Of a stretch of 64,000 nt of DNA, positions 1,344-61,302 are shown piece after piece. Numbering within the stretch: the first letter of the stretch is position 1; every line of letters starts with the position of its first letter. A program made the translations under genes and the position numbers. The notes beneath the pieces are model-generated. The model was given only the letters and a program-made list of their open reading frames with translations, had not been told where the DNA came from and ran no database searches. The stretch is from contig NZ_JAPJDA010000010.1 in assembly GCF_026241755.1 (NCBI RefSeq), forward strand, positions 64,233 to 128,232. The letters are read 5' to 3'. This stretch comes from Salinimicrobium profundisediminis (GTDB lineage Bacteria; Bacteroidota; Bacteroidia; Flavobacteriales; Flavobacteriaceae).

Positions 1344-1360
1344 CAAAAATGCAATTTTTG
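1344..1360. repeat. Dispersed AT-rich dyad, one mismatch
   Basis: CAAAAATGCAATTTTTG, one base off the recurring dyad CAAAAATGNCATTTTTG described in the findings. It is intergenic, between tRNA-Arg and the yqeY-like gene. Confidence 0.5.
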
Positions 1361-1410
1361 AAAGGTATATAATCGCATACTTCTGACTTTGTAATTCTAA
1401 AATCTCCCTT

Positions 1411-1863
1411 CTAATTTGCCAGCTTCTTCTTTACTATTGCCGATATGGTTTTACCATCGGCCCTTCCTGCAAGTTCTTTTGAAGCCATTCCCATTACTTT
1501 ACCCATATCCTGCATGCCATTGGCACCAGATTCAGATATGATCTTATCCACCTCTACCTCAATTTCCTGTTCACTCATTTGTTCCGGAAGGAAACCTTCT
1601 ATAACAGCCGCCTGGTCCAATTCGGGTTGAGCTAGATCTTCCCTTCCCTGCTCCTTATATATAGCCGCACTTTCCTTGCGCTGTTTTACGAGGCGCTGTA
1701 AGAGCTTTAATTCTTCATCTTCACTCAATCCATCTTTGCCCGAAGCATCTGTGCGAGCAAGTAAAATAGCACTTTTAACCGCTCTTAAAGCTTCTAGTTT
1801 ATTGCTGTCTTTTGCTCGCATGGCATCTTTCATTTCGGCCATGACCTTGTCCTGTAAACTCAT
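1411..1863 (-). CDS. yqeY: GatB/YqeY domain protein
   Basis: 150 residues, the usual length of the YqeY family. These small cytosolic proteins share the tail domain of the tRNA amidotransferase subunit GatB; the cellular role is not established. It begins MSLQDKVMAEMKDAMRAK and has the expected arrangement: a helical N-terminal part with LRAVKSAI, then IEGFLPEQMSEQEIEVEV and a C-terminal GKVMGMASKELAGRADGK. It lies downstream of ftsZ on the same strand, but a terminator and about 400 bases separate the two, so it probably has its own promoter. Confidence 0.9.
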   Translation of the reverse strand: MSLQDKVMAEMKDAMRAKDSNKLEALRAVKSAILLARTDASGKDGLSEDEELKLLQRLVKQRKESAAIYKEQGREDLAQPELDQAAVIEGFLPEQMSEQEIEVEVDKIISESGANGMQDMGKVMGMASKELAGRADGKTISAIVKKKLAN

Positions 1864-1953
1864 TGTATTTGGATTTTTTATTCGTTATGCGAAGATAAGG
1901 AAATCGGGCAGTGCAAACTCTTCTGAAATAAAAAAACCTTTCGTTCTGTATAA

Positions 1954-2127
1954 GCCCTTGGTTTTTGTCCTGCCACTCTAACCTCTCCTTATATTATTCC
2001 ACTTGAGGATTTAAAAAAAGGCTCCCATACGCTCCAGGTCATCATTGATCAGGGGCCCGTAGAGGGTTCGGGCTTTAGCCACTGGAATGTGTCAGGTGTG
2101 CTTGTGGGCGAAACTGTGCAGGAATAA
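1954..2127 (+). pseudogene. Possible remnant of a protein-coding gene (C-terminal tail)
   Basis: Between stops at 1951 and 2125 the plus strand reads a protein-like tail containing IPLEDLKKGSHTLQVIID and GFSHWNVSGVLVGETVQE. There is no start codon, and the stretch is richer in G+C than the other gaps here, as former coding DNA would be. The D-L-K-K-G-x-H-T-L-Q-V pattern is reminiscent of beta-sandwich domains of glycan-active enzymes, but I cannot name a family. It could also be a chance open frame. Confidence 0.3.
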
Positions 2128-2222
2128 TTAGGAATGAGCTTGTCATTCTCACTTTCATTCCTGCCTGTATAAATTGGCAGGTTAAAGAGCACACATCAAA
2201 ACCAAAAATCAACTTGCAGCAA

Positions 2223-2258
2223 ATAAAAAACCCGAAGCTGGTATTGCCGCTTCGGGTT
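2223..2258 (-). terminator. Terminator of the dcw operon (after ftsZ)
   Basis: Arms AACCCGAAGC (2229-2238) and GCTTCGGGTT (2249-2258) are followed on the minus strand by TTTTTTATTT. It lies 21 bases beyond the ftsZ stop and closes the cluster. Confidence 0.9.
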
Positions 2259-2279
2259 CTCATTTATTAAGGGAATTTC

Positions 2280-4271: not shown

Positions 4272-4333
4272 AAATTCTTTTTTACTGGTTTTCTACTTCT
4301 TTTATTCTTTTTCATAGTTATTTCCTCGCCGAT

Positions 4334-5677: not shown

Positions 5678-5680
5678 ACC

Positions 5681-12679: not shown

Positions 12680-12706
12680 ATTCTTTTGCTTCTTCTCCTG
12701 GAGAAA

Positions 12707-18909: not shown

Positions 18910-19512
18910 ATGAAGATCAAATCGGCCGAATTTGTGATCAGCAATTCCGATGTTTCCAAATGTCCGGAAACTAAGCTGCCCGAATATGCTTTTATTGGCC
19001 GCAGTAATGTTGGGAAATCTTCCCTCATCAATGCTTTAACCAATAGAAAAGATCTCGCAAAGACATCAGGCAGGCCGGGAAAAACCCAGCTTATCAACCA
19101 TTTCCTGATCAACCAGAGCTGGTTTCTGGTAGATTTACCCGGTTATGGATATGCCCGCGTATCAAAAACGGCTAAAAAGACCTTTCAGAAGTTTATCACG
19201 CAGTATTTTGAGAAACGCGAGCAAATGCTTTGCGCTTTTGTACTCATAGACAGTCGCCATAAACCACAGGCTATAGACATGGAGTTCATGACCTGGCTGG
19301 GCGAGCACCAAATCCCCTTCTGCATCATCTTTACCAAAGCCGATAAATTAAAACCCAAAGCCCTGGAGCGCAACATTCAAAATTACCAGGAAGAAATGCT
19401 GCAGGTGTGGGAAGAAATGCCGCAGTATTTCGTGACCTCCTCGGCAAATGGACTGGGAAGCGAAGAAGTTTTGGGATACATCCAGAACATCAACGACAAT
19501 CTTCAGAAATAG
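18910..19512 (+). CDS. engB: Ribosome biogenesis GTPase EngB (YihA/YsxC)
   Basis: Small GTPase required for 50S subunit assembly. 200 residues with G1 GRSNVGKSS, switch motif GRPGKTQLIN, G3 DLPGYG, G4 TKAD and G5-like TSSANG. Length and motif order match the family. Translation ends 2 bases before the tandem-repeat region, which therefore begins right at the 3' end of this transcript. Confidence 0.96.
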   Translation: MKIKSAEFVISNSDVSKCPETKLPEYAFIGRSNVGKSSLINALTNRKDLAKTSGRPGKTQLINHFLINQSWFLVDLPGYGYARVSKTAKKTFQKFITQYFEKREQMLCAFVLIDSRHKPQAIDMEFMTWLGEHQIPFCIIFTKADKLKPKALERNIQNYQEEMLQVWEEMPQYFVTSSANGLGSEEVLGYIQNINDNLQK

Positions 19513-19514
19513 GT

Positions 19515-21165
19515 ACTCAAAAGTGCCCTTTTTAAAGGGTGACTTTTCAGCCACGAATGCACGAATAATTTCTTCTGAAAAACCTGCTTACTCTGATCTA
19601 CCCGATCAAAAGTTTTAGTCTGTTTTTTCTGAAAAGAGTTCTGAAAATGGCATTTTTGGAGGGTGACTTTTCGGCCACGAATGCACGAATAATTTCTTCT
19701 GAACAACCTGTTTACTCTGATCTACCCGACCAAAAGTATTAGTCTGTTTTTTCTGAAACGGTTCTGAAAATGGCATTTTTAAAGGGTGACTTTTCTGCCA
19801 CGAATTCACGAATAATTTCTTATGAAAAACCTGCTTACTCTGATCTACCCGACCAAAAGTATTATTCTGTTTTTTCTGAAAAGGGTTCTGAAAGTGTCAC
19901 TTTTGGAAAGAATTTAGCCACAGATGCACAGATAATTTCTTTTCTTATTCTCGCTCCTTCTCAAATGCTAAGACCAAACTGTAAGGACCATTTTCCGAAT
20001 AATGTTCTGAAACTGCCCTTTTTGAAGGGTGACTTTTCGGCCACGAATGCACGAATAATTTCTTCTGAACAACCTGTTTACTCTGATCTACCCGATCAAA
20101 AGTGTTAGTCTGTTTTTTCTGAAAAGGGTTCTGAAAATGTCATTTTTGAAGGGTGACTTTTCGGCCACGAATGCACGAATAATTTCTTCTGAACAACCTG
20201 CTTACTCTGATCTACCCGACCAAAAGTATTACTCTGTTTTTTCTGAAAAGGGTTCTGAAAATGGCATTTCTGAAGGGTGACTTTTCGGCCACGAATGCAC
20301 AAATGATCTCTTCTGAACAACCTGATTACTCTGATCTACCCGATCAAAAGTTTTAGTCTGTTTTTTCTGAAAAAGGTTCTGAAAATGCCTTTTTGAAGGG
20401 TGACTTTTCTGCCACAGATGCACGAATAATTTCTTCTGAAGAACCTGCTTACTCTGATCTACCCGACCAAAAGTATTATTCTGTTTTTTCTGAAAAAGGT
20501 TCTGAAAATGGCATTTTTGAAGGGTGACTTTTCTGCCACGAATGCACGAATAATTTCTTCTGAAGAACCCGCTTACTCTGATCTACCCGACCAAAAGTAT
20601 TAATCTGTTTTTTCTGAAAAGGGTTCTGAAAATACCATTTTTGAAGGGTGACTTTTCGGCCACGAATAGACGAATAATTCCTTCTGAAGAACCCGCTTAC
20701 TCTGAAATGCTCAACAAAACTTATTAGCCCATTCTTCCTGAAAAAGGTTCTGAAAATGTCATTTTTGAAGGGTGACTTTTCGGCCACGAATGCACGAATA
20801 ATTTCTTCTGAAGAACCCGCTTACTCTGATCTCACCCAAACGTCTTAGTGATTTTCTGAAAAAGGTTCTGAAAATGCCTTTTTGAAGGGTGACTTTTCTG
20901 CCACTAATTCACGAATAGTTTTTATCAGTTTCCTTTTCACTCTGTCCCAATACTTTTTCTCTTTATTGCTGATTGTTAATTGCTCATTGATAATTGAGAA
21001 ATTGCCACAGATGCACAGATGATTTTTTTTCAAATACTCGTCCCTTCTGAAATGCTAAGACCAAACTGTAAAAACCATTTTCTGAATAATGTTCTGAAAA
21101 TGTCACTTTTGAAGGGAAATTTTTCAGCGGCAGATGCACAGATGATCTCTTTTCAAAAATTCTGA
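19515..21165. repeat. Tandem array of ~13 units of about 124 bp
   Basis: The landmark GGGTGACTTTT recurs at 19537, 19661, 19784, 20027, 20151, 20275, 20398, 20522, 20646, 20770 and 20887, that is, every 123-124 bp (117 once). Gaps are filled by divergent copies near 19907 and 21114. Units share CCACGAATGCACGAATAAT, an ACTCTGATCTACCCGA block, a CTGTTTTTTCTGAAAA block and a dyad GAAAATGGCATTTTTG. A second unit type (19897-20009, 20996-21092) carries CCACAGATGCACAGAT and AATGCTAAGACCAAACTGTA. The array lies between convergent engB and gldC. Minus-strand open frames of 60-100 codons cross it, but 124 is not a multiple of three, so the frame changes with each unit; I do not regard it as coding. 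Confidence 0.95.
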
Positions 21166-28018: not shown

Positions 28019-28732
28019 TTAAAAATCGCGATTGGCCACTGCCGTTTTAGCTCGTGAAATGCCTTCTTTTACCACCTCAAAAACCTTTTGCCTAAAAGAC
28101 TGCTCCAGCTCGTATTCTACCTGGTAAAGCAAATCTTTAGAATTTACGGTAAAGATGGTGTCAGCTTTTAATTCGGCTGTTGCCAGCAATAACAGGGCTT
28201 CCACCTCATTATCACTCACTGCAGCACGGTTTTCATTTACGGCAACTTCCAAATTATCTTCGTCGGAATGGATTTCTTTTAAAGGCTTTTTTTCTTCGGT
28301 TGCTTCGGAAAAATTCCCCGAAGCTACCTCGTTTTCTGCTTCAGAAACACTGGCTACAGGGGCCTCAAAAATGGCATTTTTGACAGGTCTTTCTGCGGAA
28401 GGTTTTTCTTCCTCTTCTAATTTTTCGTTTTCTTCAGAAGCAGCTATCTGAATCACTTTGGGTTCTGAGGTCTTTTCCTGCAGTACAGGAGGTGCAGGAT
28501 TTTCCTCAACTACCTGCGGCGCTTCCGAAGTAAAAGGCGAATCAAAGAAAGTGCCCAGCACAAAAAACAAGGCAGCAACGGCTGCAACTGCGGTTATCCA
28601 CAGCAGGTAAGTCGGTTTTTTTCTTCCTTGCTCCAGGCGCTCTTCCAGCTTTCCCCAGCCGGCGGCCGATGGCTGGATCTCCCGGCCCTCAAGCAGCTTT
28701 TTTACGTTATTTTCAATTCTTTCCGGTTCCAT
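28019..28732 (-). CDS. Membrane-anchored anti-sigma-like protein
   Basis: An upstream ATG (28750) is possible; the start at 28730-28732 gives MEPERIENNVKKLLEGREIQPSA, a common beginning of Bacteroidetes sigma-linked proteins. About 45 cytoplasmic residues precede one membrane span (LLWITAVAAVAALFFVLGTFF). A long, Glu/Ala-rich, low-complexity periplasmic part and a short helical end follow. It overlaps the sigma gene by 20 bases, so translation is coupled and an anti-sigma role is likely, though no FecR or zinc motif is visible. It contains one of the exact dispersed dyads, read as V-K-N-A-I-F-E. Confidence 0.65.
   Translation of the reverse strand: MEPERIENNVKKLLEGREIQPSAAGWGKLEERLEQGRKKPTYLLWITAVAAVAALFFVLGTFFDSPFTSEAPQVVEENPAPPVLQEKTSEPKVIQIAASEENEKLEEEEKPSAERPVKNAIFEAPVASVSEAENEVASGNFSEATEEKKPLKEIHSDEDNLEVAVNENRAAVSDNEVEALLLLATAELKADTIFTVNSKDLLYQVEYELEQSFRQKVFEVVKEGISRAKTAVANRDF
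28365..28383. repeat. Exact dispersed dyad inside a coding region
   Basis: TCAAAAATGGCATTTTTGA; core AAAAATGNCATTTTT at 28367-28381. In the anti-sigma-like gene it encodes K-N-A-I-F-E. Confidence 0.7.
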
Positions 28733-30397: not shown

Positions 30398-32992
30398 ATG
30401 AAAATCTTCACCTATCTTTTTTGCTTTTTCACATTTTTGGGCACGGCAATCGCCCAGCGACAGGTGCAAAGCCTTAATTCGGCCTGGCGTTTTTCTTCGG
30501 AAGTTCAGCCTGAAAAAAATGTGAATATTCCCCATACCTGGAATGCCGAAGATGCTTTTAAAGACGGGAAGGAATATTTCCGCGGAAAAGGCACGTATAA
30601 AAAGACCCTCTTTGCCCCTCAAAAATGGCAAAATAAACAGGTGTTTCTGAAGTTTGAAGGCAGCAACCAGGTGACCGAAGTTTTTGTAAATGGCACTTCT
30701 GCCGGAAAACACATTGGCGGCTACACCGGATTTGTCATTGATATTTCTGAAGAATTGAAGTTGGCTTCCGAAAATGAGCTAAAAATAGTTGTTGACAACA
30801 GCCACAACACCAATATTCCGCCGCTGGATGCCGATTTCAATTTTTACGGCGGAATTTATCGTGATCTTGAACTAATTATCATCGATAAACTCCACTTTGA
30901 ACTGGAAAATGCCGCTGCAGGAAATATTTTGGTTCGTACGCCCCAAGTTTCAGAAGAAAAAGCCCTGGTACAGGTAGAAGCCAGAGTGGTAAATGACGGT
31001 GAAGCTTTCAGAAATGCCACTGTGGCATTAGAAATATTGGATCCCAATGCTAAAAAATTAAAAACACTCACTAAAAAAATCAGGCTAAAAGCAAAGGAGT
31101 CAAAAAATGTCATTTTTGAAACCTCAGTAAAAAACCCCGCCCTATGGTCTCCCCAAGATCCGCAGCTTTACAGCTTTGAGATCAGTTTAGCGAGCGGAAA
31201 TCCTTCAGAAAAGCTGGATGAATTCAGTTCTAAATTCGGATTTCGCTGGTTTGAAGCCGATCCCGAAAAAGGCTTTTACCTGAATGGGAAACCTATCAAA
31301 CTTATTGGTGCAAACCGACATCAGGATCTACAAGGACTTGGAAATGCGCTTCCCAACACCATTCACAAGAGCGATTACAGGCTGATCAAAGAAATGGGGG
31401 CGAATTTTGTGCGAACTGCTCATTACCCACAAGACCCCGAAGTTTACAGGACCTGTGACGAGCTGGGGCTTATCGTGTGGTCTGAAGTGCCGGTAATCAA
31501 TGATGTTACCGCGACAGACGAGTATCACAACGTGGCCCTGCAAATGCAGAAGGAGCAGATTCAGCAGTTTTTCAACCACCCTTCGGTGATCTTCTGGGGT
31601 TATATGAACGAGATCTTTATCAGGCTGGTTTTCAACAACGAGATGACGGAAAGCGAAAAAGAAGATAAAATTGAAACTTCTGTAGCCCTGGCCAAAAAGC
31701 TTGAAAAGCTCACCAAAGAACTCGATCCTCACCGGCTAAGCGTGATGGCCCTGCACGAAAATGAACTCTATAATACTTCGGGAATTGCCGATATACCCGA
31801 TGTGATTGGCTGGAACCTTTATTTTGGCTGGTATTCACCGGGACTTGAAAACTTCGGGAAATTTCTTGATGAGCAGCACGAACGCTATCCAAACCGGCCA
31901 CTTATCATTTCGGAGTACGGGCCGGGCGCCGATGTACGTATCCAGACAGAAGATCCAAAACCCTGGGATTACAGTGAGGCCTACCAATTAAAATTACACC
32001 GCAGCTACATCAACCAGGTGCTTGCCCGCGATTATGTAGTAGGAATGGCGGCCTGGAATTTCGCCGATTTTGGTTCGTCTTTCAGGCAGGACGCCATTCC
32101 GTACATCAACCAAAAAGGCCTGCTGAATTTTGACCGCAGTAAAAAAGATATTTACTATTACTACCAGGCGAGACTGGTCGATGAATCCATGATCTATATT
32201 GCCGGTGAGAATTATGAACAAAAATTTCCGAAGAGCGAAAACCACAAAATCAGCATTCCGGTATTTTCAAATGCTGAAAAGGTGAACCTAAGCATCAATG
32301 ACAGCCTTAAAATTTCTTCGGAAGTAACCGACGGAATCTCATTTTTCGACCTAAAACTTCCTGAAGGAACTCACCGGCTCACTGCCACCACAGGCGACAT
32401 CTCCCATTCCAGAACCATCCATGTGCTCCCCAGAAAAAACCTGCTGAAAAAACTCGAAACGCAAGATTTGACCATCAACGTGGGCACACATGTGAATTAC
32501 AAAGATCCTGTAACAAAAGAAATCTGGATGAGCGACCAGCAGTATGAACCGGGCGGCTTTGGTTATGTGGGCGGTGAGGTATACCAAAAATCGGCTGCCA
32601 AGTTCCAGGGTACGGCTTCAGATATTCAGGGAACCGGGAATGACCCACTGTTCCAAACCATGCGCGAAAGCATTGAAGCCTATAAATTCGATGTAGAAGC
32701 AGGTACCTACAGAGTCACCTTATTGTTTGCAGAACCCGAGTTCAATGCTTCCGAAGAGAACATTTACAACCTCAACACTTCCGAAGAAAAGAAACCGGAA
32801 GGAGTGCGGAGTTTTGATGTGAAGGTTAACGGAAAAATTGTTTCTGAAGACCTTAACCTGGCACGCGATTACGGCCGAATTCGCGCTGTAGAAATTTCTT
32901 ATACGGTGAAGACAGAAAAAGGGATTGCGATCGAATTTTCTGAAAATGCAGGAAAATCGCTGCTTTCTGGAATTAAACTGGAAAAATTATAA
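30398..32992 (+). CDS. Glycoside hydrolase family 2 enzyme with C-terminal malectin-like domain
   Basis: 864 residues, signal peptide to ~residue 19. GH2 sugar-binding beta-sandwich (NIPHTWNAED... YKKTL), Ig-like domain, then TIM barrel with acid/base Glu405 in W-G-Y-M-N-E and nucleophile Glu506 in I-S-E-Y-G. The usual N-E pair is intact. The last ~180 residues (INVGTHVNYKDP... GTYRVTLLFAEPEF... VRSFDVKVNG) look like malectin, a carbohydrate-binding module. Beta-galactosidase or beta-glucuronidase activity is likely but not decidable. Contains an in-frame dyad (K-N-V-I-F-E). Convergent with the GH3 gene. Confidence 0.9.
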   Translation: MKIFTYLFCFFTFLGTAIAQRQVQSLNSAWRFSSEVQPEKNVNIPHTWNAEDAFKDGKEYFRGKGTYKKTLFAPQKWQNKQVFLKFEGSNQVTEVFVNGTSAGKHIGGYTGFVIDISEELKLASENELKIVVDNSHNTNIPPLDADFNFYGGIYRDLELIIIDKLHFELENAAAGNILVRTPQVSEEKALVQVEARVVNDGEAFRNATVALEILDPNAKKLKTLTKKIRLKAKESKNVIFETSVKNPALWSPQDPQLYSFEISLASGNPSEKLDEFSSKFGFRWFEADPEKGFYLNGKPIKLIGANRHQDLQGLGNALPNTIHKSDYRLIKEMGANFVRTAHYPQDPEVYRTCDELGLIVWSEVPVINDVTATDEYHNVALQMQKEQIQQFFNHPSVIFWGYMNEIFIRLVFNNEMTESEKEDKIETSVALAKKLEKLTKELDPHRLSVMALHENELYNTSGIADIPDVIGWNLYFGWYSPGLENFGKFLDEQHERYPNRPLIISEYGPGADVRIQTEDPKPWDYSEAYQLKLHRSYINQVLARDYVVGMAAWNFADFGSSFRQDAIPYINQKGLLNFDRSKKDIYYYYQARLVDESMIYIAGENYEQKFPKSENHKISIPVFSNAEKVNLSINDSLKISSEVTDGISFFDLKLPEGTHRLTATTGDISHSRTIHVLPRKNLLKKLETQDLTINVGTHVNYKDPVTKEIWMSDQQYEPGGFGYVGGEVYQKSAAKFQGTASDIQGTGNDPLFQTMRESIEAYKFDVEAGTYRVTLLFAEPEFNASEENIYNLNTSEEKKPEGVRSFDVKVNGKIVSEDLNLARDYGRIRAVEISYTVKTEKGIAIEFSENAGKSLLSGIKLEKL
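31101..31118. repeat. Exact dispersed dyad inside GH2 gene
   Basis: Core AAAAATGTCATTTTT at 31103-31117, read in frame as K-N-V-I-F-E. Confidence 0.65.
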
Positions 32993-33021: not shown

Positions 33022-33060
33022 GCTTCCAAAAATGGCATTTTAAATACCCTTTTTGGAAGC
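33022..33060. repeat. Intergenic hairpin with near-exact dyad
   Basis: Arms GCTTCCAAAAA and TTTTTGGAAGC flank a 17-base loop; the left half contains AAAAATGGCATTTTA, one base off the dispersed dyad. It lies 30 bases after the GH2 stop. No U-run follows, so it is not a typical intrinsic terminator. Confidence 0.6.
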
Positions 33061-38160: not shown

Positions 38161-38179
38161 TAAAAATGTCATTTTTGGA
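38161..38179. repeat. Exact dispersed dyad spanning a stop codon
   Basis: TAAAAATGTCATTTTTGGA; core 38162-38176. The TGA stop of the adjacent GH144-type gene (38169-38171, minus strand) lies in its centre. Confidence 0.65.
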
Positions 38180-39545: not shown

Positions 39546-39562
39546 TTAATTGTTTTTGTGAT

Positions 39563-40931: not shown

Positions 40932-40968
40932 AAAAACACTCCTCAAAAATGGCATTTTTGAGGAGTGT
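40932..40968 (-). terminator. Perfect 16-bp hairpin built on the dispersed dyad, inside the PUL
   Basis: Arms 40936-40951 and 40953-40968 are perfectly complementary around a single central base (40952) and contain the exact core AAAAATGGCATTTTT. On the minus strand GAGGAGTG is followed by TTTTT. It sits 13 bases after the LamG gene stop and 30 before the first GH144-type start, so it should act as a terminator or attenuator between the sus genes and the hydrolases. Confidence 0.75.
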
Positions 40969-47510: not shown

Positions 47511-50255
47511 CTAAAAGTTGGCAATTAACCAGTTCGTGAGGTTTTCTGAAGTATCTACATTTATTTTCTTTCTAAGCCTGTACCTGTGTACTTCAACCCC
47601 CCTAACACTTATCCCCATTAAAGGTGCAATTTCCTTTGAAGTGAGATTCATCTTGAGGTAGGCACAAAGTTTAAGATCTCTATTACTTAAGTTTGGAAAT
47701 TTACTTAGTAAATCTCTGAAGAAATCTTCATGCAGCTCATTAAAATTAGTTTCAAAGACTTTCCACTCATCATCATTCTGTACGGCATTATTTATCTTAT
47801 TCATAATGTGTTTGAGCCTGTACTGATTTGAAAATTTTGCTTTGTCTTTATTCAATTCCCCCTGTATCTGCATAAGAACTTCATTCTTCTTTGCAGCGAT
47901 CACGGTAGAATTTGCCAGCTCTTTGCGCTTCATATTAATCTCATTAATAAGCTGCTCCTTCTCAAGCTTGTTCATTCTCTCTTCATGCTCCTTTTGATAC
48001 CTGACCTTGAGTATCTTTCTATGTTGCTGAAGTTTCAGCTTATTTATATAGTAGATGAGCACAACCAGCATCAACAAAGACAGGAGGTACAACACCTTCA
48101 TGTAATCTTTTAAATACCATGGAGGATCTACCACAAACCTGAAAGCACTAAATACCGAAGCTTTTTGCTGAGATCCCACGGCTGTTAACCTCAGCTCATA
48201 CTGGTCGTATGGTAAATTCTGAAACTGAATCTTTCCTTCCTGCACTTCCCCACGCACGGCAGCCGTATTATTACCCACGAGTTCGTATTCCATTCCCACC
48301 GCATCCGAAACCGGTAAACCGGTAAGAATCGTCACCTCCCTTGCCTGCCTGGAGGGAATATGGGGAATAACATTAAGGTCATAGTAATTAGTCCCGTCGT
48401 ACAGCTTCTGCACTACCGGTGTACTCAAAAATTCCCGGGAACTAAAATCCTTTAACTCATTAAGATTAAGCCTGGCAAAACCGTCGTGAAGGGTGATGTA
48501 GTAAATGGAGTCGTTCAGCTTTATGAGCCGCTCATTTTTCTTTACGGTACGCTTGTTTAACATACCTGCCGTTACCAGGATCTTATCATCTTTAAAATTT
48601 GTGACGGTTAAAAGATTCTTTTCGGAATCCATGAACCAGAAATATTTACCATCCTGTCCTAAAAGCCTTTTGCCTTCATATTCCTGCCATTCAGATAATA
48701 ATTCGAGATCTTGAGTAAAGGGATTATAGTGGTACCACTCTCCACCAGTAAAAGCAACAATTTGCCCATTCACCCTGTACAGTTCAGCTTCCTGCTTCCC
48801 TACTCCGGTTGAGGTGCTTATCTTCTTTACTGAAGTAATACTGTCGCCTTCACTAGTTAGGCCTACCCTGTAGATACCTTCATAAGAATCTGTCACCCAC
48901 AGGGTAGAAGTATTCTCTAGCAGCATCTGCTTTACAGGAAAGTCTATTCCCTTAAGGCGCTGCACTTCGCCGGTATTTTCATTAAAAAGATCTATTCCCG
49001 TGTAACTTCCTATGAGAAATCTTTTGTTACCATTCTTTAAGATTTGGAAACTTCCTGTACGCCTGTCGATAGGTACAAAACGGTCATTTACAATTTTAAA
49101 AGTTCCGTTGTTATGGTTACTGTACATCACCCCGTCGTGAACCTCCAGATTCCAGGAATGACCTTCGGCCCCCTCCAGTAATTCTATCTTCTCATCATTC
49201 ATCCTGAAAACGCCGGTATTACTGGCGAGATAAAGATCGTCCTCCTTAAAATTTAAATCATATACAGAACCCAATTCTCCACTTTCATCGGTAAAGAACC
49301 TGAAAGGAGAATATATATCAACGACATCAATTCCATTATCAAGCCCCAACCAGATTTTACCTTTATTTTGGGCCAGGGCAAGAACAGTGTTATTTTGCAG
49401 GCCGTCCCACCTGTTATACGAGAAGATTTCACCGGTGTCTTCATTAAACTGAATAATGCCATTTTTAAGTGTTCCAATTAGAATTTCCCCTGAAGAAAGA
49501 GATAATACATGGTTGAGCTCATACTGCTGAAGTTCCTCCTGAAGTCCTTTATCAACCAGCCTTCGAATATGCTCACCGTCAAAAAGAAAGATATCGTCCT
49601 TTAAGCCAATTAACAATTCATCCCCATGCACAATAAGTTCTCTTACAACCCCATCTTTTAGAACTTCCTGGTTGGGCAACGGCTCCATTTCACCATTGTT
49701 ATTTAAGTAAAAGAGCCCGGAATCTCCTGTCGCCAACACAAGCCTGTCCTTATAGATCTCCATTTGATTGACATTCACTCTTTGCACAGGAGTGATTTTA
49801 TCATTTTCGTACCGGTAAACTGCTCCAAAAGACCTGAAATAAATAGCATCTTTATGTGCAATAATTTCCCAGAACTCCTCACTCTGCAGTTCATATTCGC
49901 CCAAAAGGGGAATAAGGGAAGTATAACACATATCACCCCTGGTATCTCTTTCCCAGTAACCAAATTCCCGGTAAGAACCTGTGTAGATCTTTCCTTTATG
50001 AGGAAGCACAGATCTTATAACCGAACGGTTCTCGAGATCAAATAATTCCCATCGCTGCCCGTCAAAAGATAAGAGGCCCTGGTTGTTCGCGACATAAATC
50101 ACCCCGCTTTCATCAAGTGCAATATCCCAATTCTGGCTGGCCGCCTTATAACTAAAAGAAGAGTAGTTATGTATAGGTGGAGAAAGCTCCTGTGCTGTAG
50201 TAGATGTAAATGATAAAATAATGATTACCAATACATTAAATCGAAATATTTCCAT
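47511..50255 (-). CDS. Membrane-anchored LuxR-type regulator with beta-propeller sensor
   Basis: An upstream ATG (50372) exists, but ATG at 50253-50255 starts a signal-like MEIFRFNVLVIIILSFTSTTAQ, giving ~914 residues. Order: periplasmic propeller with repeated blades (~25-640), Y_Y_Y-type beta-sandwich (YELVGNNTAAVRGEV... YDQYELRLTAVG), one membrane span (VLYLLSLLMLVVLIYYI), coiled coil, and C-terminal LuxR HTH (SNRDLKLCAYLKMNLTSKEIAPLMG). There is no histidine kinase or receiver, so it is a one-piece sensor and DNA-binding protein. It probably binds PUL oligosaccharides and activates susC transcription. Confidence 0.88.
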   Translation of the reverse strand: MEIFRFNVLVIIILSFTSTTAQELSPPIHNYSSFSYKAASQNWDIALDESGVIYVANNQGLLSFDGQRWELFDLENRSVIRSVLPHKGKIYTGSYREFGYWERDTRGDMCYTSLIPLLGEYELQSEEFWEIIAHKDAIYFRSFGAVYRYENDKITPVQRVNVNQMEIYKDRLVLATGDSGLFYLNNNGEMEPLPNQEVLKDGVVRELIVHGDELLIGLKDDIFLFDGEHIRRLVDKGLQEELQQYELNHVLSLSSGEILIGTLKNGIIQFNEDTGEIFSYNRWDGLQNNTVLALAQNKGKIWLGLDNGIDVVDIYSPFRFFTDESGELGSVYDLNFKEDDLYLASNTGVFRMNDEKIELLEGAEGHSWNLEVHDGVMYSNHNNGTFKIVNDRFVPIDRRTGSFQILKNGNKRFLIGSYTGIDLFNENTGEVQRLKGIDFPVKQMLLENTSTLWVTDSYEGIYRVGLTSEGDSITSVKKISTSTGVGKQEAELYRVNGQIVAFTGGEWYHYNPFTQDLELLSEWQEYEGKRLLGQDGKYFWFMDSEKNLLTVTNFKDDKILVTAGMLNKRTVKKNERLIKLNDSIYYITLHDGFARLNLNELKDFSSREFLSTPVVQKLYDGTNYYDLNVIPHIPSRQAREVTILTGLPVSDAVGMEYELVGNNTAAVRGEVQEGKIQFQNLPYDQYELRLTAVGSQQKASVFSAFRFVVDPPWYLKDYMKVLYLLSLLMLVVLIYYINKLKLQQHRKILKVRYQKEHEERMNKLEKEQLINEINMKRKELANSTVIAAKKNEVLMQIQGELNKDKAKFSNQYRLKHIMNKINNAVQNDDEWKVFETNFNELHEDFFRDLLSKFPNLSNRDLKLCAYLKMNLTSKEIAPLMGISVRGVEVHRYRLRKKINVDTSENLTNWLIANF

Positions 50256-51452: not shown

Positions 51453-51471
51453 CCAAAAAAGCCATTTTTGG
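51453..51471. repeat. Near-exact dispersed dyad after rlmN
   Basis: TTCCAAAAAAGCCATTTTTGG region; core 51455-51469 has one mismatch. It sits 4 bases beyond the rlmN stop and can form CCAAAAA/TTTTTGG. Confidence 0.5.
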
Positions 51472-52531: not shown

Positions 52532-52535
52532 GCTG

Positions 52536-52568: not shown

Positions 52569-52594
52569 CTCTTTAAAAATGCCATTTTTGAGGA
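52569..52594. repeat. Exact dispersed dyad, intergenic hairpin
   Basis: Core AAAAATGCCATTTTT at 52575-52589 with partial pairing of the flanks (CTCTTT / GAGGAT). Between rlmN and queA. Confidence 0.65.
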
Positions 52595-53855: not shown

Positions 53856-53884
53856 TCCCATATAAGATAGATTTTAAGAAGCTG

Positions 53885-55218: not shown

Positions 55219-55221
55219 AAT

Positions 55222-55809: not shown

Positions 55810-57794
55810 TAGATAATTTTCTTCAAAACTAAAGTTTCTGATTGTTTCTCTACCATTTGTGCATAAAATTCTTTCAAAGCAATATACTGCTCTGGAAGAA
55901 AAACAATATTTTTTAAAATAAAATCGGCTTCAAATCGCAAATATCTTCCATTTTGTTTCACCAGGAATTTAAATTCACCTTCACCTCCATTTATCTGGAT
56001 AATTGAACTTTCGGGCAGGTATTCTACTTCATAGTTTTCGGGAATAAGAAGGTTTATGGTTTTTTTAGTTACCATTGGGAATTCAAAGAAAATAGGGTAA
56101 TGTCTTTCATCTGCCTTAAAAGGATTTTCATCCAAACCTTTAAAAACAAATGGTTTGATATATATTTTGTCGTTAATAACATCTACCCCCTGCTGCAACT
56201 CAAAGACATAAGACTCTTTTACCTCTAAACCTATTGAATCAAGATTCTCCTGCTGTACTTCGGAAATTTTAATATTCCCCTTCTCTTTTTCCAAATTCTC
56301 CAGAAGAACCTGCTCAGAAAGTCCTTCCATTTCTTTTCTATAAGCCTTTGCAAAAAGGCCATCATAACTTTCCGCCGCTTTCCCCCTAAGCACCATATCA
56401 TCACCAAGTTCATAGCTAAGCACAGAGACATCAGATGAAAGAACCGCAGAATACAAATCTACCCAATCTGAGGATAAATTTTCCCGTATGATCCTTCCTT
56501 TCCAGTTCCGTGCCCGCTTAGGTAATTCTCCCGGTGCAGCATGAGGGTCTGTTGCATCAAGTAAAATAGCACCTTCCGGAAATTCAATCATAGAGATCAC
56601 ATAATTAAACCCGGTACGGGTAGGAAAAACCGGGATGCCATTACTTCGCGTACTCAACACAACGGGATTAGCATTGAGGCCGGTATATTTTAACATGGCA
56701 GTTAGCAAAAGGTTAATATCTCCTACATTCCCTTCCCCTTTTTTAAAGGCAGATTTTCCGCCGCTTTCAGGCATATAGCCATAGTAGCCGTTCCACTTTA
56801 CTTTTTGTTTTACAAACTTGTAGATGAGCTGAATTTTTTCAAGAGGGGACTCCACACCCTGCACGAGCTGGTCTACCTCATCTTCAAAATAACCATCCCG
56901 GTTCATTTCCTTTTGAAAATTGGCGTCATTAAATATGCTTTTGGCCACACTTTCCCAATCTTCAGCATAGTTTTTTAATGTAGTATTTGGAAATCTTGTA
57001 GAGGTAAGCTCCCATTTCAAAAACGCTGCATAATTATGCAAATAATCTACATAATCTTCCTTTTTAAGGGCAGGAACATTGTTTGTAGCCACCTCATATA
57101 CATTCTGTGAAAATTGAAGCCTTGATGTGCCCCTGCCATTGTTATTACCCAGGTGAATGAAAGGTTCGGTACTTTGTGTAATGGGTAATATTAAAGGAGA
57201 TTTAGGGTTTGAATATTTTCTGAAGTTAAGATATTCAGGGATCACTATTTTTACTTCAAGCCGGTTTATAGGGATTGTATACTGCAGCGGCGTTTGATCT
57301 ATTGACGTAACAAAGGGAGAGTTCAATGTGTATTTATACTCAATTACACTTCCTTCCTGTACTACAGGCATAGTAATTTTTGTAGTAAGCCTGTAATCAT
57401 TTTCTTCCTCTTCAAAAATGCCATTTTTGCCAAGTTTTTCTGAAGTGAGTTTCCCATTATTGATATTATAGGTATATCCTTTTATACTGCTCACCCTTTC
57501 TTCGTCACTTGAATTTTTATAGTAAGAAATCTCTTTAGTGGCCCAGTCAAACCCTTCCTTTGTATAGATTTTTATCCTTTCGTGCACATCGGTCACCAAA
57601 GTAAAACCTATTCCATTATCATACCTGTAATACACGTTGTGGCTTCGGTATAAAACTGCGGCATCTACTTCTTTGTCAAAGGGATGAAATTCTTCTTTAA
57701 CTTCATCAATTGATACTTTTCCAAAGCGAAAGTCCTGGGCTCCCGCTCCAAAACTTAACAACACAAAGGCTGTAAGAAAAAAATACTTATTCAT
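55809..57794 (-). CDS. DUF3857/transglutaminase-like protein without catalytic Cys
   Basis: An upstream in-frame ATG (57932) lies inside the preceding gene; ATG at 57792-57794 starts the signal peptide MNKYFFLTAFVLLSFGAGAQ, giving ~661 residues. N-terminal DUF3857 beta domain, then transglutaminase-like core (IYKFVKQKVKWNGYYGYMP). Where the paralogue has G-D-C-K, this reads G-N-V-G-D-I-N-L-L, so the nucleophile is Val. Likely non-enzymatic, perhaps binding or scaffold. Starts 10 bases after the paralogue's stop. Contains an exact dyad (K-N-G-I-F-E). Confidence 0.85.
   Translation of the reverse strand: MNKYFFLTAFVLLSFGAGAQDFRFGKVSIDEVKEEFHPFDKEVDAAVLYRSHNVYYRYDNGIGFTLVTDVHERIKIYTKEGFDWATKEISYYKNSSDEERVSSIKGYTYNINNGKLTSEKLGKNGIFEEEENDYRLTTKITMPVVQEGSVIEYKYTLNSPFVTSIDQTPLQYTIPINRLEVKIVIPEYLNFRKYSNPKSPLILPITQSTEPFIHLGNNNGRGTSRLQFSQNVYEVATNNVPALKKEDYVDYLHNYAAFLKWELTSTRFPNTTLKNYAEDWESVAKSIFNDANFQKEMNRDGYFEDEVDQLVQGVESPLEKIQLIYKFVKQKVKWNGYYGYMPESGGKSAFKKGEGNVGDINLLLTAMLKYTGLNANPVVLSTRSNGIPVFPTRTGFNYVISMIEFPEGAILLDATDPHAAPGELPKRARNWKGRIIRENLSSDWVDLYSAVLSSDVSVLSYELGDDMVLRGKAAESYDGLFAKAYRKEMEGLSEQVLLENLEKEKGNIKISEVQQENLDSIGLEVKESYVFELQQGVDVINDKIYIKPFVFKGLDENPFKADERHYPIFFEFPMVTKKTINLLIPENYEVEYLPESSIIQINGGEGEFKFLVKQNGRYLRFEADFILKNIVFLPEQYIALKEFYAQMVEKQSETLVLKKII
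57413..57429. repeat. Exact dispersed dyad inside DUF3857 gene
   Basis: CAAAAATGCCATTTTTG; read in the gene's frame as K-N-G-I-F-E. Confidence 0.65.
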
Positions 57795-57804
57795 AATAAA
57801 TGGT

Positions 57805-59727
57805 TTAGTTGCTCCGCACGAGAACTGCTTTTTGATTTCCCAGAGCGTGGATTGAATACATAAAATCTCGAAATTCCTGGAGTGCATCGGCAGGCCAGGT
57901 ATCTTCGTTGAGGGTGTAGGAGCGTTCAACACATATAATTTTTTTTCCTTCTATCTCGGTCAGCTTTGCGTCAAAACTGAAACTTCCAAATTTACTATCG
58001 AGCTTCACCGCTTCAGGAATTGCTTCAGATTCAAAATTCTCGGGCAACTCAAATTCAAACCGGTCTTTTGCAGTAGTGCCACGACCAATTTTAATTGGCA
58101 GCTTACGGTCATCACGATCTGAAATTGAATAAGTATCAACAGTTAGGAAATTGAGAGGCATTAAAAGCCGATCGGCTACTTTGGAAGGATATTTTTCACC
58201 CGAAAATCTTATGACTTCGGTAAATTCCTGTTTTTCCCGATCATTGATAAAATCCGGTTTTTCCAGATCCAGACCTTTGAGATGCCCCCAATTCTTTTTA
58301 TAGAACAAAACCTGATCTTTTTCGGTTGACGAAGTAATACGATAGATATTTCCATATGAAATCCCTCTGCTTTTTCTTTCAAAAGCAGCCTTATATGTTC
58401 CATCTTCTTCTAAGGTTATCTTTACTACTGTTTCCTGTACATTTTCCGAGGGGGAATATGTTTTGGTCCTTACAATTTCACCACCCTCAGGTTTAACCAG
58501 CAGCACGTGGCGATCATCTGTAAAATCACCCAAATAATTAAACGGAAGGGTTTGGCTGGTGCATTCCAACCAAATATCCTCTTCATTTTCGCGTGGCACA
58601 TTAAGAATAACATGGTCACCCTGTATAGAAACAAACTCGGGGTCTATATCTTTTTTCTCCTCTCCCGAATAGACTACTGCATAATAGGAGGTAATATTTT
58701 GTGAATCCAGGAGAGCTTTAGTATAATTGGTAAGCCCTTTACAATCTCCATACTTCACCTTATCAACTTCTTCGGCAGAGATAGGTTCCCAGCCACCAAT
58801 ACCCAGCTGGACACTTATATACCTGGAGTTTTGCTGAACATAATCGTAAATGATCCTGGCTTTCTCTACATCATCTTTGGCTCCTGCCGTCAATTTAGAT
58901 ATTTTGTCTATGGTTGATGCCGGAAGTTTGTTACGTCCTGCCAGTAAATTATCGTACTGCCACTTCCCGAATTCTTCCCATGTAGCCCCGCTTCCTTTCA
59001 CTCCCACAAGGGCAAATTCATTGAGGGCCACCTGTAAACCAGGGGTAAAATCTTCAAGAGGAGGGCTTAAAGGCTCATATTTGTATGCAGGAAAATTGGA
59101 TAAAGTATAGGTAATTGCAACTCCTGAATTTTCTTTTAAAATCTCCAGGCTATCAAGATTTCTCTCCTGTATTCTATAACTGATGTTTTCAGGAATTGAC
59201 ACCAGATAGCTGGATTTTTCCACACTTACATTAAAGCCTCTTACAGGGTTCCAATCGGGCAGAAAAATAGTGCTATTTGTCTCTACCTCACTTTCATAAA
59301 CAATAGTGTAAGGGTATTCATTTGGGGTATAATCGGCATAGCTAACCCTGGTATCACTATATAATGTTCCTGAGGAAGTTGCACTGCGATCGGTAAAATG
59401 TTTCGATTTAAACTTTTTAATCTCACTGCCGTGCTTGTCATAAATTAAAAGACTTTGTTCTTTAATTTTAATGTTGTTACTGTAAAAATCACCGGCAAAT
59501 GCAAAACGGTCCCCTTTTTCATTAAAGATGGTGATCACCTTTCGTGTGTTCATGCTCATCTTATCTACAGAATTGATTGAAATTGACAGCACCTGCTCGC
59601 GAACTACCGCATGAGCATCCTCTTTTAAGACAACATCAATGAGATCTATGGAATAAGGAGAACTTTGGGCGAAGACTGCTGAAGATGGAAGCAACAGCAA
59701 GAACAAAAGGAAGTATAAACGTAACAT
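57805..59727 (-). CDS. DUF3857/transglutaminase-like secreted protein
   Basis: 640 residues, signal peptide ending VFAQ. N-terminal DUF3857 domain (to ~210), transglutaminase-like core with the nucleophile in Y-G-D-C-K-G-L and upstream YDYVQQNSRYISVQLG, C-terminal beta-rich domain. The Cys and following K are intact, so peptidase or amide-transfer activity is possible; substrate unknown. Forms a tandem pair with the Cys-less paralogue, a common arrangement in Bacteroidetes. Confidence 0.87.
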   Translation of the reverse strand: MLRLYFLLFLLLLPSSAVFAQSSPYSIDLIDVVLKEDAHAVVREQVLSISINSVDKMSMNTRKVITIFNEKGDRFAFAGDFYSNNIKIKEQSLLIYDKHGSEIKKFKSKHFTDRSATSSGTLYSDTRVSYADYTPNEYPYTIVYESEVETNSTIFLPDWNPVRGFNVSVEKSSYLVSIPENISYRIQERNLDSLEILKENSGVAITYTLSNFPAYKYEPLSPPLEDFTPGLQVALNEFALVGVKGSGATWEEFGKWQYDNLLAGRNKLPASTIDKISKLTAGAKDDVEKARIIYDYVQQNSRYISVQLGIGGWEPISAEEVDKVKYGDCKGLTNYTKALLDSQNITSYYAVVYSGEEKKDIDPEFVSIQGDHVILNVPRENEEDIWLECTSQTLPFNYLGDFTDDRHVLLVKPEGGEIVRTKTYSPSENVQETVVKITLEEDGTYKAAFERKSRGISYGNIYRITSSTEKDQVLFYKKNWGHLKGLDLEKPDFINDREKQEFTEVIRFSGEKYPSKVADRLLMPLNFLTVDTYSISDRDDRKLPIKIGRGTTAKDRFEFELPENFESEAIPEAVKLDSKFGSFSFDAKLTEIEGKKIICVERSYTLNEDTWPADALQEFRDFMYSIHALGNQKAVLVRSN

Positions 59728-59826
59728 TGACAGAACAATAGGTTGGCCCTGCTAATATAACATTTTAACTCTTTTTAACACATTTTAAGTTAATTTTATT
59801 TTGGGCAAAAATGATTACAAACGCAA

Positions 59827-60279
59827 TTAACTTTTATTCTTTGAATCAATTATTATAGTTACCGGCCCGTCATTAAGAAGGCTCACTTTCATATCGGCTC
59901 CAAATTTTCCGGTTCCAATCTTCTTTCCCAGCTCTTTTTCAAAAGCAGACACAAATTCTTCATACAGTGGAATGGCCACATCGGGTTTGGCGGCTTTAAT
60001 GTAACTGGGCCTGTTGCCCTTTTTAGTGCTGGCGTGAAGCGTAAACTGGCTCACCACAATTGCGTCGCCATTTACGTCAAGTAACGAATCATTCATTACA
60101 TCATTAGAATCATTAAAAATGCGCATGTTCACTATCTTCTTACACAGCCAGGCAATATCCTGACTGTCATCTTCATCCTCTATTCCAATAAGTACCAATA
60201 AACCTTTTCCAATTTCGGCATTTTTGACACCTTCTATGGTCACCGATGCTTCAGAAACTCTTTGTATTACTGCTCTCAT
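59827..60279 (-). CDS. dtd: D-aminoacyl-tRNA deacylase
   Basis: Frees tRNA mischarged with D-amino acids or glycine. 150 residues: MRAVIQRVSEASVTI start, the S-Q-F-T-L segment of the active site (VVSQFTLHAS) and the C-terminal N-D-G-P-V-T motif. Start overlaps the rsgA stop by 4 bases, a common pairing. Confidence 0.96.
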   Translation of the reverse strand: MRAVIQRVSEASVTIEGVKNAEIGKGLLVLIGIEDEDDSQDIAWLCKKIVNMRIFNDSNDVMNDSLLDVNGDAIVVSQFTLHASTKKGNRPSYIKAAKPDVAIPLYEEFVSAFEKELGKKIGTGKFGADMKVSLLNDGPVTIIIDSKNKS

Positions 60280-61232
60280 TCCTGCTGATGATTATCAAAA
60301 CGATAATTTTGTTCGTCTTCGCCTTTTAAGATTTGTAAATAACTTTTATAACGGGACCATGGGATCTCCCCGGCATCTAATGCATCTTTTACCGCACACT
60401 TTGGTTCTTCCAGGTGCAGACAGTTGTAAAATTTACAGTCCTGTTTGCGGGCAAAGAATTCGGGAAAATAATCTCCCAATTCCTCTTTTTCCATGTCTAC
60501 CACTCCAAAACCTTTTATTCCGGGGGTGTCGATGATTCGGGCACCAAAATCGAGATCAAACATTTCGGCAAAAGTAGTGGTATGTTGCCCCTGCCGGTGT
60601 TGTTCAGAAATTTCGGTAGTTTTTAGATCGAGTTTGGGTTCAATGGCATTGATCAAAGTCGATTTTCCCGTACCACTGTGACCGGAGATCATGCTGGTTT
60701 TATCTTTCATGAGCTCCTTTACCTGCTCTACATTTTTTCCGGTTTTGGCCGAAATCCCTATACATTGATAGCCAATTTGCCTGTACATGGCCGCCAAATA
60801 TTTCACCTCATCAAGTTCTTCGGGTTTATAAGCATCTATCTTGTTGAACAACAAAATAGCTTTGATGTGGTAAGCTTCCGCAGTAACAAGAAAACGGTCT
60901 ATAAAAGTGGTAAAAGTGGGCGGATTGTTAAGTGTGACCAGCAAAAAAGCCTGGTCAATGTTTGAAGCTATAATGTGTGTTTGCTTTGAAAGGTTAACCG
61001 ATTTACGGATAATGTAATTCTCGCGCTCTGCAATATCTGTAATTACCCCGTTTTGCTCCTCTTCGGCATTACTTTCCACCTTAAACTCCACCCGGTCTCC
61101 CACCGCAACGGGATTGGTGCTTTTTATGCCTTTGATCCTGAATTTTCCTTTGATCCTACAATCAAAAAATCGGCCGTTATCGGCTTTTACATGGTACCAG
61201 CTTCCGGTAGATTTATAAACAGTTCCTTTCAT
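60276..61232 (-). CDS. rsgA: Ribosome small-subunit GTPase RsgA
   Basis: Circularly permuted GTPase acting in late 30S maturation. 318 residues: N-terminal OB-fold, G4 (FNKIDAY) before G1 (SGHSGTGKST) and G3 (DTPGIKGFG), then C-terminal zinc finger with C-x-F-Y-N-C-L-H and a later Cys (PKCAV). This order is diagnostic. Confidence 0.96.
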   Translation of the reverse strand: MKGTVYKSTGSWYHVKADNGRFFDCRIKGKFRIKGIKSTNPVAVGDRVEFKVESNAEEEQNGVITDIAERENYIIRKSVNLSKQTHIIASNIDQAFLLVTLNNPPTFTTFIDRFLVTAEAYHIKAILLFNKIDAYKPEELDEVKYLAAMYRQIGYQCIGISAKTGKNVEQVKELMKDKTSMISGHSGTGKSTLINAIEPKLDLKTTEISEQHRQGQHTTTFAEMFDLDFGARIIDTPGIKGFGVVDMEKEELGDYFPEFFARKQDCKFYNCLHLEEPKCAVKDALDAGEIPWSRYKSYLQILKGEDEQNYRFDNHQQE

Positions 61233-61243
61233 TTAGTGCTTTT

Positions 61244-61251
61244 CAAAAATA
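61244..61251 (-). promoter_or_regulatory. Possible -7 box of rsgA
   Basis: TATTTTTG on the minus strand matches TAnnTTTG and lies 11 bases before the ATG; a leader of about 5 bases would result. No -33 TTG at the right distance. Confidence 0.3.
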
Positions 61252-61284
61252 GCTCCTCCAAAAATTTTCTTCTGAATGATGGTC

Positions 61285-61302
61285 CAAAAATGGCATTTTT
61301 GA
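61285..61302. repeat. Exact dispersed dyad, intergenic
   Basis: CAAAAATGGCATTTTTGA with core 61286-61300. The right arm plus GAAGGAG can also pair with CTCCTCCAAAAAT at 61253-61265, giving a larger alternative hairpin followed by a T-run on the plus strand. Confidence 0.65.

What the first reader, a model, noticed from the sequence alone, without database searches (positions are those of the whole stretch)
1344..61302. A dispersed 17-bp dyad, CAAAAATGNCATTTTTG, recurs across the window
Exact cores AAAAATGNCATTTTT are at 28367, 31103, 38162, 40945, 52575, 57414 and 61286, with one-mismatch copies at 1345, 33028 and 51455 and a near-copy in each full unit of the 124-bp array. Fourteen fixed positions should occur far less than once in 64 kb at this base composition (my hand estimate is about 10^-3). 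Intergenic copies sit close behind genes, often inside larger hairpins. Half-sites (AAAAATGNC or its complement) are also common, for example near 6990, 7306, 30638, 39026 and 60218. Candidate explanations: a matS-like chromosome-organising site, a DNA-uptake-type sequence (such motifs are known as paired terminator hairpins), a nucleoid-protein operator, or a miniature repeat family. I know of no described flavobacterial element with this sequence.
Basis: partly seen in the sequence, partly recalled or inferred. Interest (0 to 1): 0.75.

Follow-up and report, generated by a model that had tools for sequence, protein, structure and literature searches.

The report
Probable DNA-uptake signal in Salinimicrobium
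A 15-letter mirror-symmetric DNA word is scattered about 300 times through this bacterium's genome and is at background level in a relative whose DNA-import genes are broken, so it is probably a label by which the cells recognise and take up DNA of their own kind.

Summary
AAAAATGNCATTTTT occurs exactly 7 times in the window (17 with up to one mismatch; 0.16 expected) and 296 times in the 4.04 Mb genome, against 1 for the reversed control. It is limited to one genus, by inference Salinimicrobium. Copies are gained and lost by point substitution, not insertion. The 14 core positions change far less than their surroundings; the central N changes at the background rate. Copies lie in genes too (40 of 108), with the same flank pattern. 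Between convergent genes the dyad often tips a terminator hairpin (8 of 12); inside genes never (0 of 40). The lead to function: G003, near-complete with only 4 dyads, has a decayed comEC, a disrupted dprA and no DUF5689 gene, while all nine dyad-rich genomes keep all three. These genes are needed for transformation in Riemerella anatipestifer (PMC8459023). Against: G002 keeps all three but has only 4 dyads outside cassette arrays. Best reading: a palindromic DNA-uptake sequence in Bacteroidota, inferred, not shown by experiment. A matS-like role and a MITE are not supported; a chromosome-structuring operator is the main rival.

The parts
28367..28381 (.). exact dyad, inside gene 28019-28750 (-)
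   Evidence: at the aligned place exact in G009, G005, G006 and G010, one mismatch in G011, unaligned in G003 and G002
31103..31117 (.). exact dyad, inside a glycosyl hydrolase family 2 gene 30398-32992 (+)
   Evidence: exact in G009, six mismatches in G003, gapped in G010 and G002, unaligned in G011, G005 and G006
38162..38176 (.). exact dyad overlapping the 3' end of gene 38169-39545 (-, putative glucoamylase)
   Evidence: exact in G009, gapped in G003, unaligned in the other five
40945..40959 (.). exact dyad at the tip of a 16-bp perfect terminator-type hairpin between genes 40981-42693 (-) and 39563-40906 (-)
   Evidence: -21 kcal/mol, z -4.99; exact in G009 and G010, one mismatch in G011, two in G005 and G002, gapped in G006, unaligned in G003
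52575..52589 (.). exact dyad between genes 52806-53861 (-) and 51476-52531 (-)
   Evidence: alignment gapped in G009, G011 and G006, one mismatch in G005, unaligned in G010, G003 and G002
57414..57428 (.). exact dyad inside gene 55809-57932 (-, DUF3857/transglutaminase-like)
   Evidence: exact in G009, four and five mismatches in G006 and G010, unaligned in the other four
61286..61300 (.). exact dyad between genes 61393-62475 (-) and 60276-61232 (-, RsgA)
   Evidence: exact in G009, unaligned in the other six
1345..1359 (+). one-mismatch copy, intergenic
33028..33042 (+). one-mismatch copy between convergent genes
49452..49466 (+). one-mismatch copy, coding
51455..51469 (+). one-mismatch copy, intergenic
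62549..62563 (+). one-mismatch copy, coding
19498..21159 (+). tandem array of about 12-13 units of 124 bp between a GTPase gene and gldC, with near-copies of the dyad (five within one mismatch: 19643, 19766, 20133, 20504, 20752); only two partial matches at the same place in G009

Best explanation
The dyad is the core of a DNA-uptake sequence (a self-recognition signal for natural transformation) of the genus Salinimicrobium. The extended site is roughly AAAA-N-A-SS-T-Y-TC-AAAAATG-N-CATTTTT-GA-R-A-SS-T-N-TTTT (S = G or C, not necessarily matched between arms), with a weak second T-rich tract further out. Inferred mechanism: a surface receptor binds the site on double-stranded DNA and favours import of DNA from the same genus; ComEC and DprA then bring it in and hand it to recombination. 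The candidate receptor is the CarboxypepD_reg outer-membrane-type protein plus the DUF5689 lipoprotein encoded next to it, whose Riemerella counterparts are essential for transformation. Imported alleles that carry the site replace alleles without it, so sites accumulate by substitution wherever tolerated, in genes too; between convergent genes they have been co-opted as terminator tips. When competence is lost the sites decay, as in G003. Shown here: enrichment, genus limits, conservation at DNA level in coding and non-coding sequence, turnover by substitution, terminator co-option, and loss of competence genes in a low-dyad species. Inferred: uptake bias, the receptor and the drive.
For: (1) 296 copies against 1 reversed control; genus members 0-296, and 393 genomes of other genera of the family at most 4. 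(2) Between G000 and G009, core substitution is 0.029 per position one way (15 sites) and 0.006 the other (12 sites), against 0.13-0.17 at the central N, about 0.11 in near flanks and 0.14 further out; only sites aligned without any gap in 95 bases enter these rates (15 of 25 and 12 of 18 aligned), and the two directions share sites. 17 of 25 aligned G000 sites and 17 of 18 aligned G009 sites are exact in the other species. (3) 40 of 108 exact sites are inside genes, 10 at gene edges, 58 intergenic. The flank pattern (G, A, SS, T, T-rich at +9 to +13) is present in coding sites taken alone. (4) Perfect hairpin extension of 5 bp or more: 8 of 12 convergent intergenic sites; 3 of 27 and 0 of 13 co-directional (two of the three are one orthologous pair); 0 of 6 divergent; 0 of 40 coding; 0 of 10 edge. 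This mirrors uptake sequences inside terminators in Neisseria and Pasteurellaceae (PMC1852404, passages read). USS also have AT-rich flanks (PMC7811141, passages read). (5) ComEC: open frames of 648-690 aa in 10 genomes (9 dyad-rich, plus G002); in G003 (4 dyads, 99% complete) only pieces of 26-98 residues, some with stops, with two large stretches missing. DUF5689: same 10, not found in G003 or G001. DprA: domain open in the same 10; in G003 the N-terminal part has stops and both ends change frame; not found in G001. G003 groups with dyad-rich G008 (99/98) in an rlmN tree, so loss is likely. (6) ComEC, DprA, a DUF5689/DUF5017 protein and its CarboxypepD_reg neighbour are essential for transformation in R. 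anatipestifer (PMC8459023, abstract and two sections read). The same adjacent pair is in G000. R. columbina prefers its own DNA, no motif established (PMC7965970, abstract, one section and passages read).
Against: No experiment, and no paper on transformation in Salinimicrobium found. The core is a palindrome; the known uptake sequences are not (recalled). G002 keeps all three competence genes, yet 10 of its 14 exact dyads lie in attC-like repeats, leaving 4 dispersed ones, as few as G003. In 160 kb of G002 not chosen for dyads it still shows excess near-forms (1, 5 and 14 with 0, 1 and 2 mismatches; 0, 0.2 and 3.7 simulated), which G003 hardly does (0, 1, 12 against 0.1, 0.5, 9.1 in 220 kb); no other dialect was found. 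The co-loss therefore rests on one good genome (G003) and one 74%-complete one (G001) that may never have had the motif. One-sided Fisher is 0.045 with G002 counted as low (0.18 without G001), or 0.015 if G002 counts as high, none corrected for phylogeny. The tree is one gene, with long outgroup branches flagged. 100 kb of one other genus showed no comparable palindrome. G000 DNA not matched by the G009 stretches held is not poor in dyads (14 in 97.6 kb against 27 in 289.1 kb); some of it may simply lie outside what I fetched.
Confidence: 0.57

Rival explanations
1. The dyad is the operator of a dimeric cytoplasmic DNA-binding protein that organises the chromosome (a nucleoid or division-control protein with about 300 sites, loosely like Noc or SlmA but without regional bias). 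Selection keeps each site for folding or compaction.
For: Two-fold symmetry with a fixed one-base spacer (gaps of 0, 2 or 3: 0 copies) suits a dimer. A/T tracts and S positions alternate outward as in bent DNA. Strong core conservation at fixed places. G002 keeps competence genes but few dispersed dyads.
Against: No regional pattern: 83 GAC-type sites in G009 are spread genome-wide (KS p 0.054), including near both skew switch points. It does not explain why low-dyad G003 has lost three competence genes. No candidate protein was identified, and I did not search for one systematically.
Confidence: 0.24
2. An RNA-level element: the dyad is a conserved tip of intrinsic terminators or 3'-end hairpins.
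For: 8 of 12 convergent intergenic copies sit in perfect hairpins, many followed by T-runs. 40945 folds with z -5.
Against: 0 of 40 coding, 0 of 6 divergent and 3 of 40 co-directional intergenic copies have that extension. In G000 the S positions are not matched across the dyad. Coding copies carry the same flank pattern.
Confidence: 0.06
3. The dispersed dyads descend from the recombination sites (attC-like repeats) of the genus's cassette arrays, or act as secondary sites of their tyrosine recombinase.
For: attC-like repeats holding the dyad or a near-copy occur on G002 cassette contigs and in 5 of 9 recombinase regions examined (G009, G000, G010, G006, G011; not G002 C5, G003, G005, G004). 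A Leeuwenhoekiella MAG contig has a similar repeat by eye.
Against: A BLAST of the attC-like repeat against the other G000, G009 and relative stretches held gave no hit over 40 bases at E 0.05. Dispersed dyads turn over by substitution in place. G002, which has the array, has few dispersed dyads.
Confidence: 0.08
4. A miniature inverted-repeat or REP element spread by transposition.
For: Many near-identical short palindromes, genus-limited.
Against: No conserved element ends beyond the graded flanks. 23 of 25 aligned G000 sites align to G009 without a gap in the core and differ only by point changes. Copies lie inside genes.
Confidence: 0.02

Closest known systems
DNA uptake sequences (DUS, Neisseriaceae) and uptake signal sequences (USS, Pasteurellaceae)
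   Same: Hundreds of copies of a short exact core, in genes and between them, frequent in terminator hairpins, AT-rich flanks (USS), clade-specific (PMC1852404 and PMC7811141, passages read).
   Different: The core is itself a palindrome with a one-base spacer. Fewer exact copies (1,465 USS and 1,892 DUS quoted in PMC7811141). Another phylum. Uptake bias and receptor are unproven, and the presumed receptor would be an outer-membrane protein/DUF5689 pair rather than a type IV pilin (pilin receptor recalled).
Natural transformation system of Riemerella (ComEC, DprA, ComF, RecA, DUF5689 and CarboxypepD_reg pair)
   Same: ComEC, DprA and a DUF5689 gene are present in the dyad-rich genomes; the adjacent CarboxypepD_reg/DUF5689-DUF5017 pair was confirmed by Pfam in G000.
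   Different: No uptake motif is established there; PMC7965970 lists only A/T-rich k-mers and leaves the question open.
matS/MatP, SlmA sites, Noc sites
   Same: Palindromic protein-type sites scattered on a chromosome.
   Different: Sequences differ (recalled); no restriction to or exclusion from a chromosome region; no candidate binding protein.
Integron attC sites
   Same: attC-like repeats of the genus contain the dyad or near-copies.
   Different: Dispersed dyads lack the attC-like arms and lie singly in unrelated places.

Membership tests
DNA uptake sequence (DUS/USS) | short exact core over-represented far beyond compositional expectation | tested here: met
DNA uptake sequence (DUS/USS) | dispersed in coding and intergenic DNA, arising by substitution rather than insertion | tested here: met
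DNA uptake sequence (DUS/USS) | co-option in terminators without a hairpin being required elsewhere | tested here: met
DNA uptake sequence (DUS/USS) | presence tracks functional competence genes | tested here: inconclusive
   9 of 9 dyad-rich genomes (49-296 dyads) keep comEC, DUF5689 and dprA; G003 has lost them; G001 (74% complete) shows only a sub-cut-off ComEC fragment; G002 keeps all three with 4 dispersed dyads
DNA uptake sequence (DUS/USS) | site on a DNA fragment raises uptake or transformation | not testable with these tools
   bench assay needed
DNA uptake sequence (DUS/USS) | cognate surface receptor binds the site | not testable with these tools
   candidate pair named only by homology
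matS / MatP system | sites confined to the terminus macrodomain | tested here: not met
   sites throughout G009
REP / MITE | conserved element ends and insertion alleles with empty sites | tested here: not met
intrinsic terminator element | stem extension at most copies | tested here: not met
   11 of 108 copies
integron attC | attC arms around the copy, in a cassette array | tested here: not met
   met for 10 of 14 G002 copies; no attC-like hit over 40 bases in the other G000, G009 and relative stretches

The most novel reading that the evidence does not exclude
The first DNA-uptake sequence outside the Proteobacteria (novelty recalled, not exhaustively searched): a palindromic self-DNA signal in Bacteroidota, read at the outer membrane by a SusCD-like protein/DUF5689 lipoprotein pair instead of a type IV pilus, spread by biased import and decaying after loss of competence. 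Gene cassettes that carry the same signal in their attC-like sites would share in it.
Probability: 0.4. Interest if true: 0.9.

Novelty: new variant of a known kind. Interest (0 to 1): 0.78.

Why it matters
Sequence-specific self-recognition during DNA uptake is, as far as I recall, known only in Neisseriaceae and Pasteurellaceae, where a pilus is involved. An independent case in a phylum with different outer-membrane machinery would show that such signals evolve repeatedly. It would give a motif with which to test self-preference in flavobacteria directly (R. columbina prefers its own DNA, reason unknown), point to a receptor, and suggest which Salinimicrobium species are transformable.

Tried and rejected
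Regional (matS, Noc or SlmA-like) distribution: not supported. MITE/REP: rejected for the dispersed copies. RNA hairpin as the general function: rejected. A second dialect in G002 or G003: none found in 200 and 220 kb. The word TTCCGAAGAA is enriched in G000, G009, G002 and G003 alike, so it is not tied to the dyad. The 124-bp array as a master locus: only two partial matches at that place in G009. A true integron integrase: all matches stay below the TIGR02249 cut-off, and the same search also rings in 14 of 14 control genomes, so it is not specific. A palindrome of the same kind in another genus: none in 100 kb of G346. A changed receptor as the reason for few dyads in G002: ComEC, DUF5689 and the partner's C-terminal part are the most divergent there, but dyad-rich G008 is nearly as divergent, so undecided. 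Paper searches found no description of this motif.
Full report
What was checked. AAAAATGNCATTTTT was searched in the window: 7 exact copies, 17 with up to one mismatch, 0.16 expected. The window lies in contig C3 of a 4.04 Mb, 101-contig genome (G000), which holds 296 exact copies and 1 copy of the pattern read backwards. In 387 kb of G000 (41 copies) Markov simulations of order 3, 5 and 6 gave 0 or 1. The spacer is exactly one base: gaps of 0, 2 and 3 give 0 copies in the G000 and G009 samples. All one-mismatch forms together number 40 against 41 exact in G000, and 88 against 67 in G009, although 42 single changes are possible, so the exact core is favoured.

Who has it. Counts in 12 genus members: G000 296, G009 246, G010 113, G004 108, G007 108, G005 104, G008 93 (2.2 Mb, 75% complete), G011 60, G006 49, G002 14, G003 4, G001 0 (74% complete). 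Of 397 genomes drawn from the family, the 393 of other genera have at most 4.

Anatomy. For 108 exact sites in 1.307 Mb (G000 387 kb, G009 920 kb; 2 of 40 sampled G009 blocks were dropped because they overlap another stretch) I called genes by open frame and codon usage: 40 sites inside genes, 10 at gene edges, 58 intergenic, while 89% of the bases are coding. The two sets contain orthologous pairs and so are not fully independent. Intergenic sites are sparsest between divergent genes (6 in 28.5 kb), denser between convergent (12 in 25.1 kb) and co-directional genes (40 in 81.3 kb). Outward from the core the arms follow G, A/G, not T, A, S, S, T, N, then T-rich at 9-13, with a faint second T-rich stretch at 21-24; coding sites alone show the same main features. 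In G000 the S bases of the two arms are not matched. Perfect arm-to-arm matching of 5 or more bases is found in 11 of 108 sites: 8 of 12 convergent and 3 of 27 left-pointing co-directional (two of these are the orthologous pair at 40945), and none of the 40 coding, 13 right-pointing, 6 divergent or 10 edge sites; permuted arms would give 0.09 of convergent sites. So termination is a local second use.

Evolution. G009 is a single 3.51-Mb contig, about 88% identical across this region. Of 41 G000 sites, 25 align: 17 exact, 4 with one change, 2 with two, 2 with a gap; 16 do not align to the G009 stretches held. Of 26 G009 sites, 18 align: 17 exact, 1 with one change. In the sites aligned without any gap (15 and 12) core substitution is 0.029 and 0.006 per position, against 0.13-0.17 at N and about 0.14 outside. 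Towards more distant relatives, coding site 28367 is exact in G005, G006 and G010 and one base off in G011; the hairpin site 40945 is exact in G010, one base off in G011, two off in G005 and G002, gapped in G006; most other window sites do not align or are not conserved. This is turnover by point mutation with a strong preference for the exact core. The window's 124-bp array is a local expansion.

Chromosome map. In G009 all 83 GAC-type sites, and the first 100 listed of 121 GGC..G-type sites, were mapped. In 40 sampled blocks the GC skew changes sign near 1.65 and 3.3 Mb; sites occur near both and elsewhere, with a mild, non-significant deficit in the first Mb (KS p 0.054 for the complete set).

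Link to competence. The Riemerella papers suggested testing its transformation genes in the 12 genus members. ComEC (PF03772): open frames of 648-690 aa in 10 genomes; in G003 five aligned pieces of 26-98 residues, some with stops, two large stretches missing; in G001 a 19-bit fragment below cut-off with no match to G000 ComEC. DUF5689 (PF18942): the same 10; none in G003 or G001. DprA (PF02481): open over the domain in the same 10; in G003 the domain still scores over cut-off, but the N-terminal part has stops in another frame and the C-terminal part is in yet another; none in G001. In an rlmN tree G003 groups with dyad-rich G008 (99/98), so G003 most likely lost its dyads; this is one gene, and long outgroup branches were flagged.

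The awkward case, G002. It keeps all three genes, but 10 of its 14 exact dyads lie in attC-like repeats, so only 4 are dispersed. Two stretches that I had fetched because they hold dyads inflate my first G002 sample; in the other 160 kb there are 1, 5 and 14 forms with 0, 1 and 2 mismatches against 0, 0.2 and 3.7 simulated and 0, 0, 0 for the reversed pattern, while G003 has 0, 1 and 12 in 220 kb against 0.1, 0.5 and 9.1 simulated and 0, 1, 9 reversed. So G002 carries a degenerate residue of the motif and G003 is at background. Recent weakening of uptake or of its specificity in G002 would fit, but is a guess.

The candidate receptor. In G000 the DUF5689/DUF5017 lipoprotein gene lies directly downstream of a gene for a 932-aa protein with CarboxypepD_reg domains, as described in Riemerella, with an Exo_endo_phos_3 gene next door. 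That the 932-aa protein is an outer-membrane barrel, and that the DUF5689 protein is a lipoprotein, is my reading of the sequences and of the Riemerella paper, not a tool result.

Cassette arrays. Three small G002 contigs carry short genes separated by attC-like repeats holding the dyad. Such repeats, with dyads of varying exactness, also lie in 5 of 9 regions fetched round an IntI-like recombinase, and one is in the Leeuwenhoekiella contig (by eye). Whether cassettes carry the dyad because it aids uptake, or because this attC type has it for its own reasons, is open.

Verdict. It is an inference from genome anatomy and gene co-loss; only an uptake assay can settle it.

Noticed in passing
G002 contigs C8, C15, C20 (L125-L127) and the start of C21 (L128): Integron-like cassette array: short genes, mostly on one strand, attC-like repeats with the dyad or near-copies, and a 329-aa transposase that looks IS110-like by eye.
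   Followed up: partly
L145-L156, e.g. L151:1150-2385: IntI-like tyrosine recombinases of about 400 aa in the genus, below the integron-integrase cut-off with a gap in the model; the same search rings in all 14 control genomes. Several lie close to contig ends.
   Followed up: partly
G000, G009, G002, G003 samples: A second over-represented word, TTCCGAAGAA, 10- to 18-fold over an order-3 model and independent of the dyad; in G009 53 of its 110 coding copies are in one sense phase.
   Followed up: partly
window 19498-21159: 124-bp tandem array with CACGAATGCACGAAT-type units, expanded in G000, two partial matches at the same place in G009.
   Followed up: partly
window 38169-40906: Two adjacent putative glucoamylase genes (PF10091) that look like a tandem duplication.
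   Followed up: no
L231:4875-5936: An endonuclease/exonuclease/phosphatase-family gene (PF19580) lies divergently beside the CarboxypepD_reg/DUF5689 pair.
   Followed up: no
L024 about 860-2620 and L039 about 11435-13030: Half-sites recurring inside locally repetitive stretches; whether these are coding was not checked.
   Followed up: no
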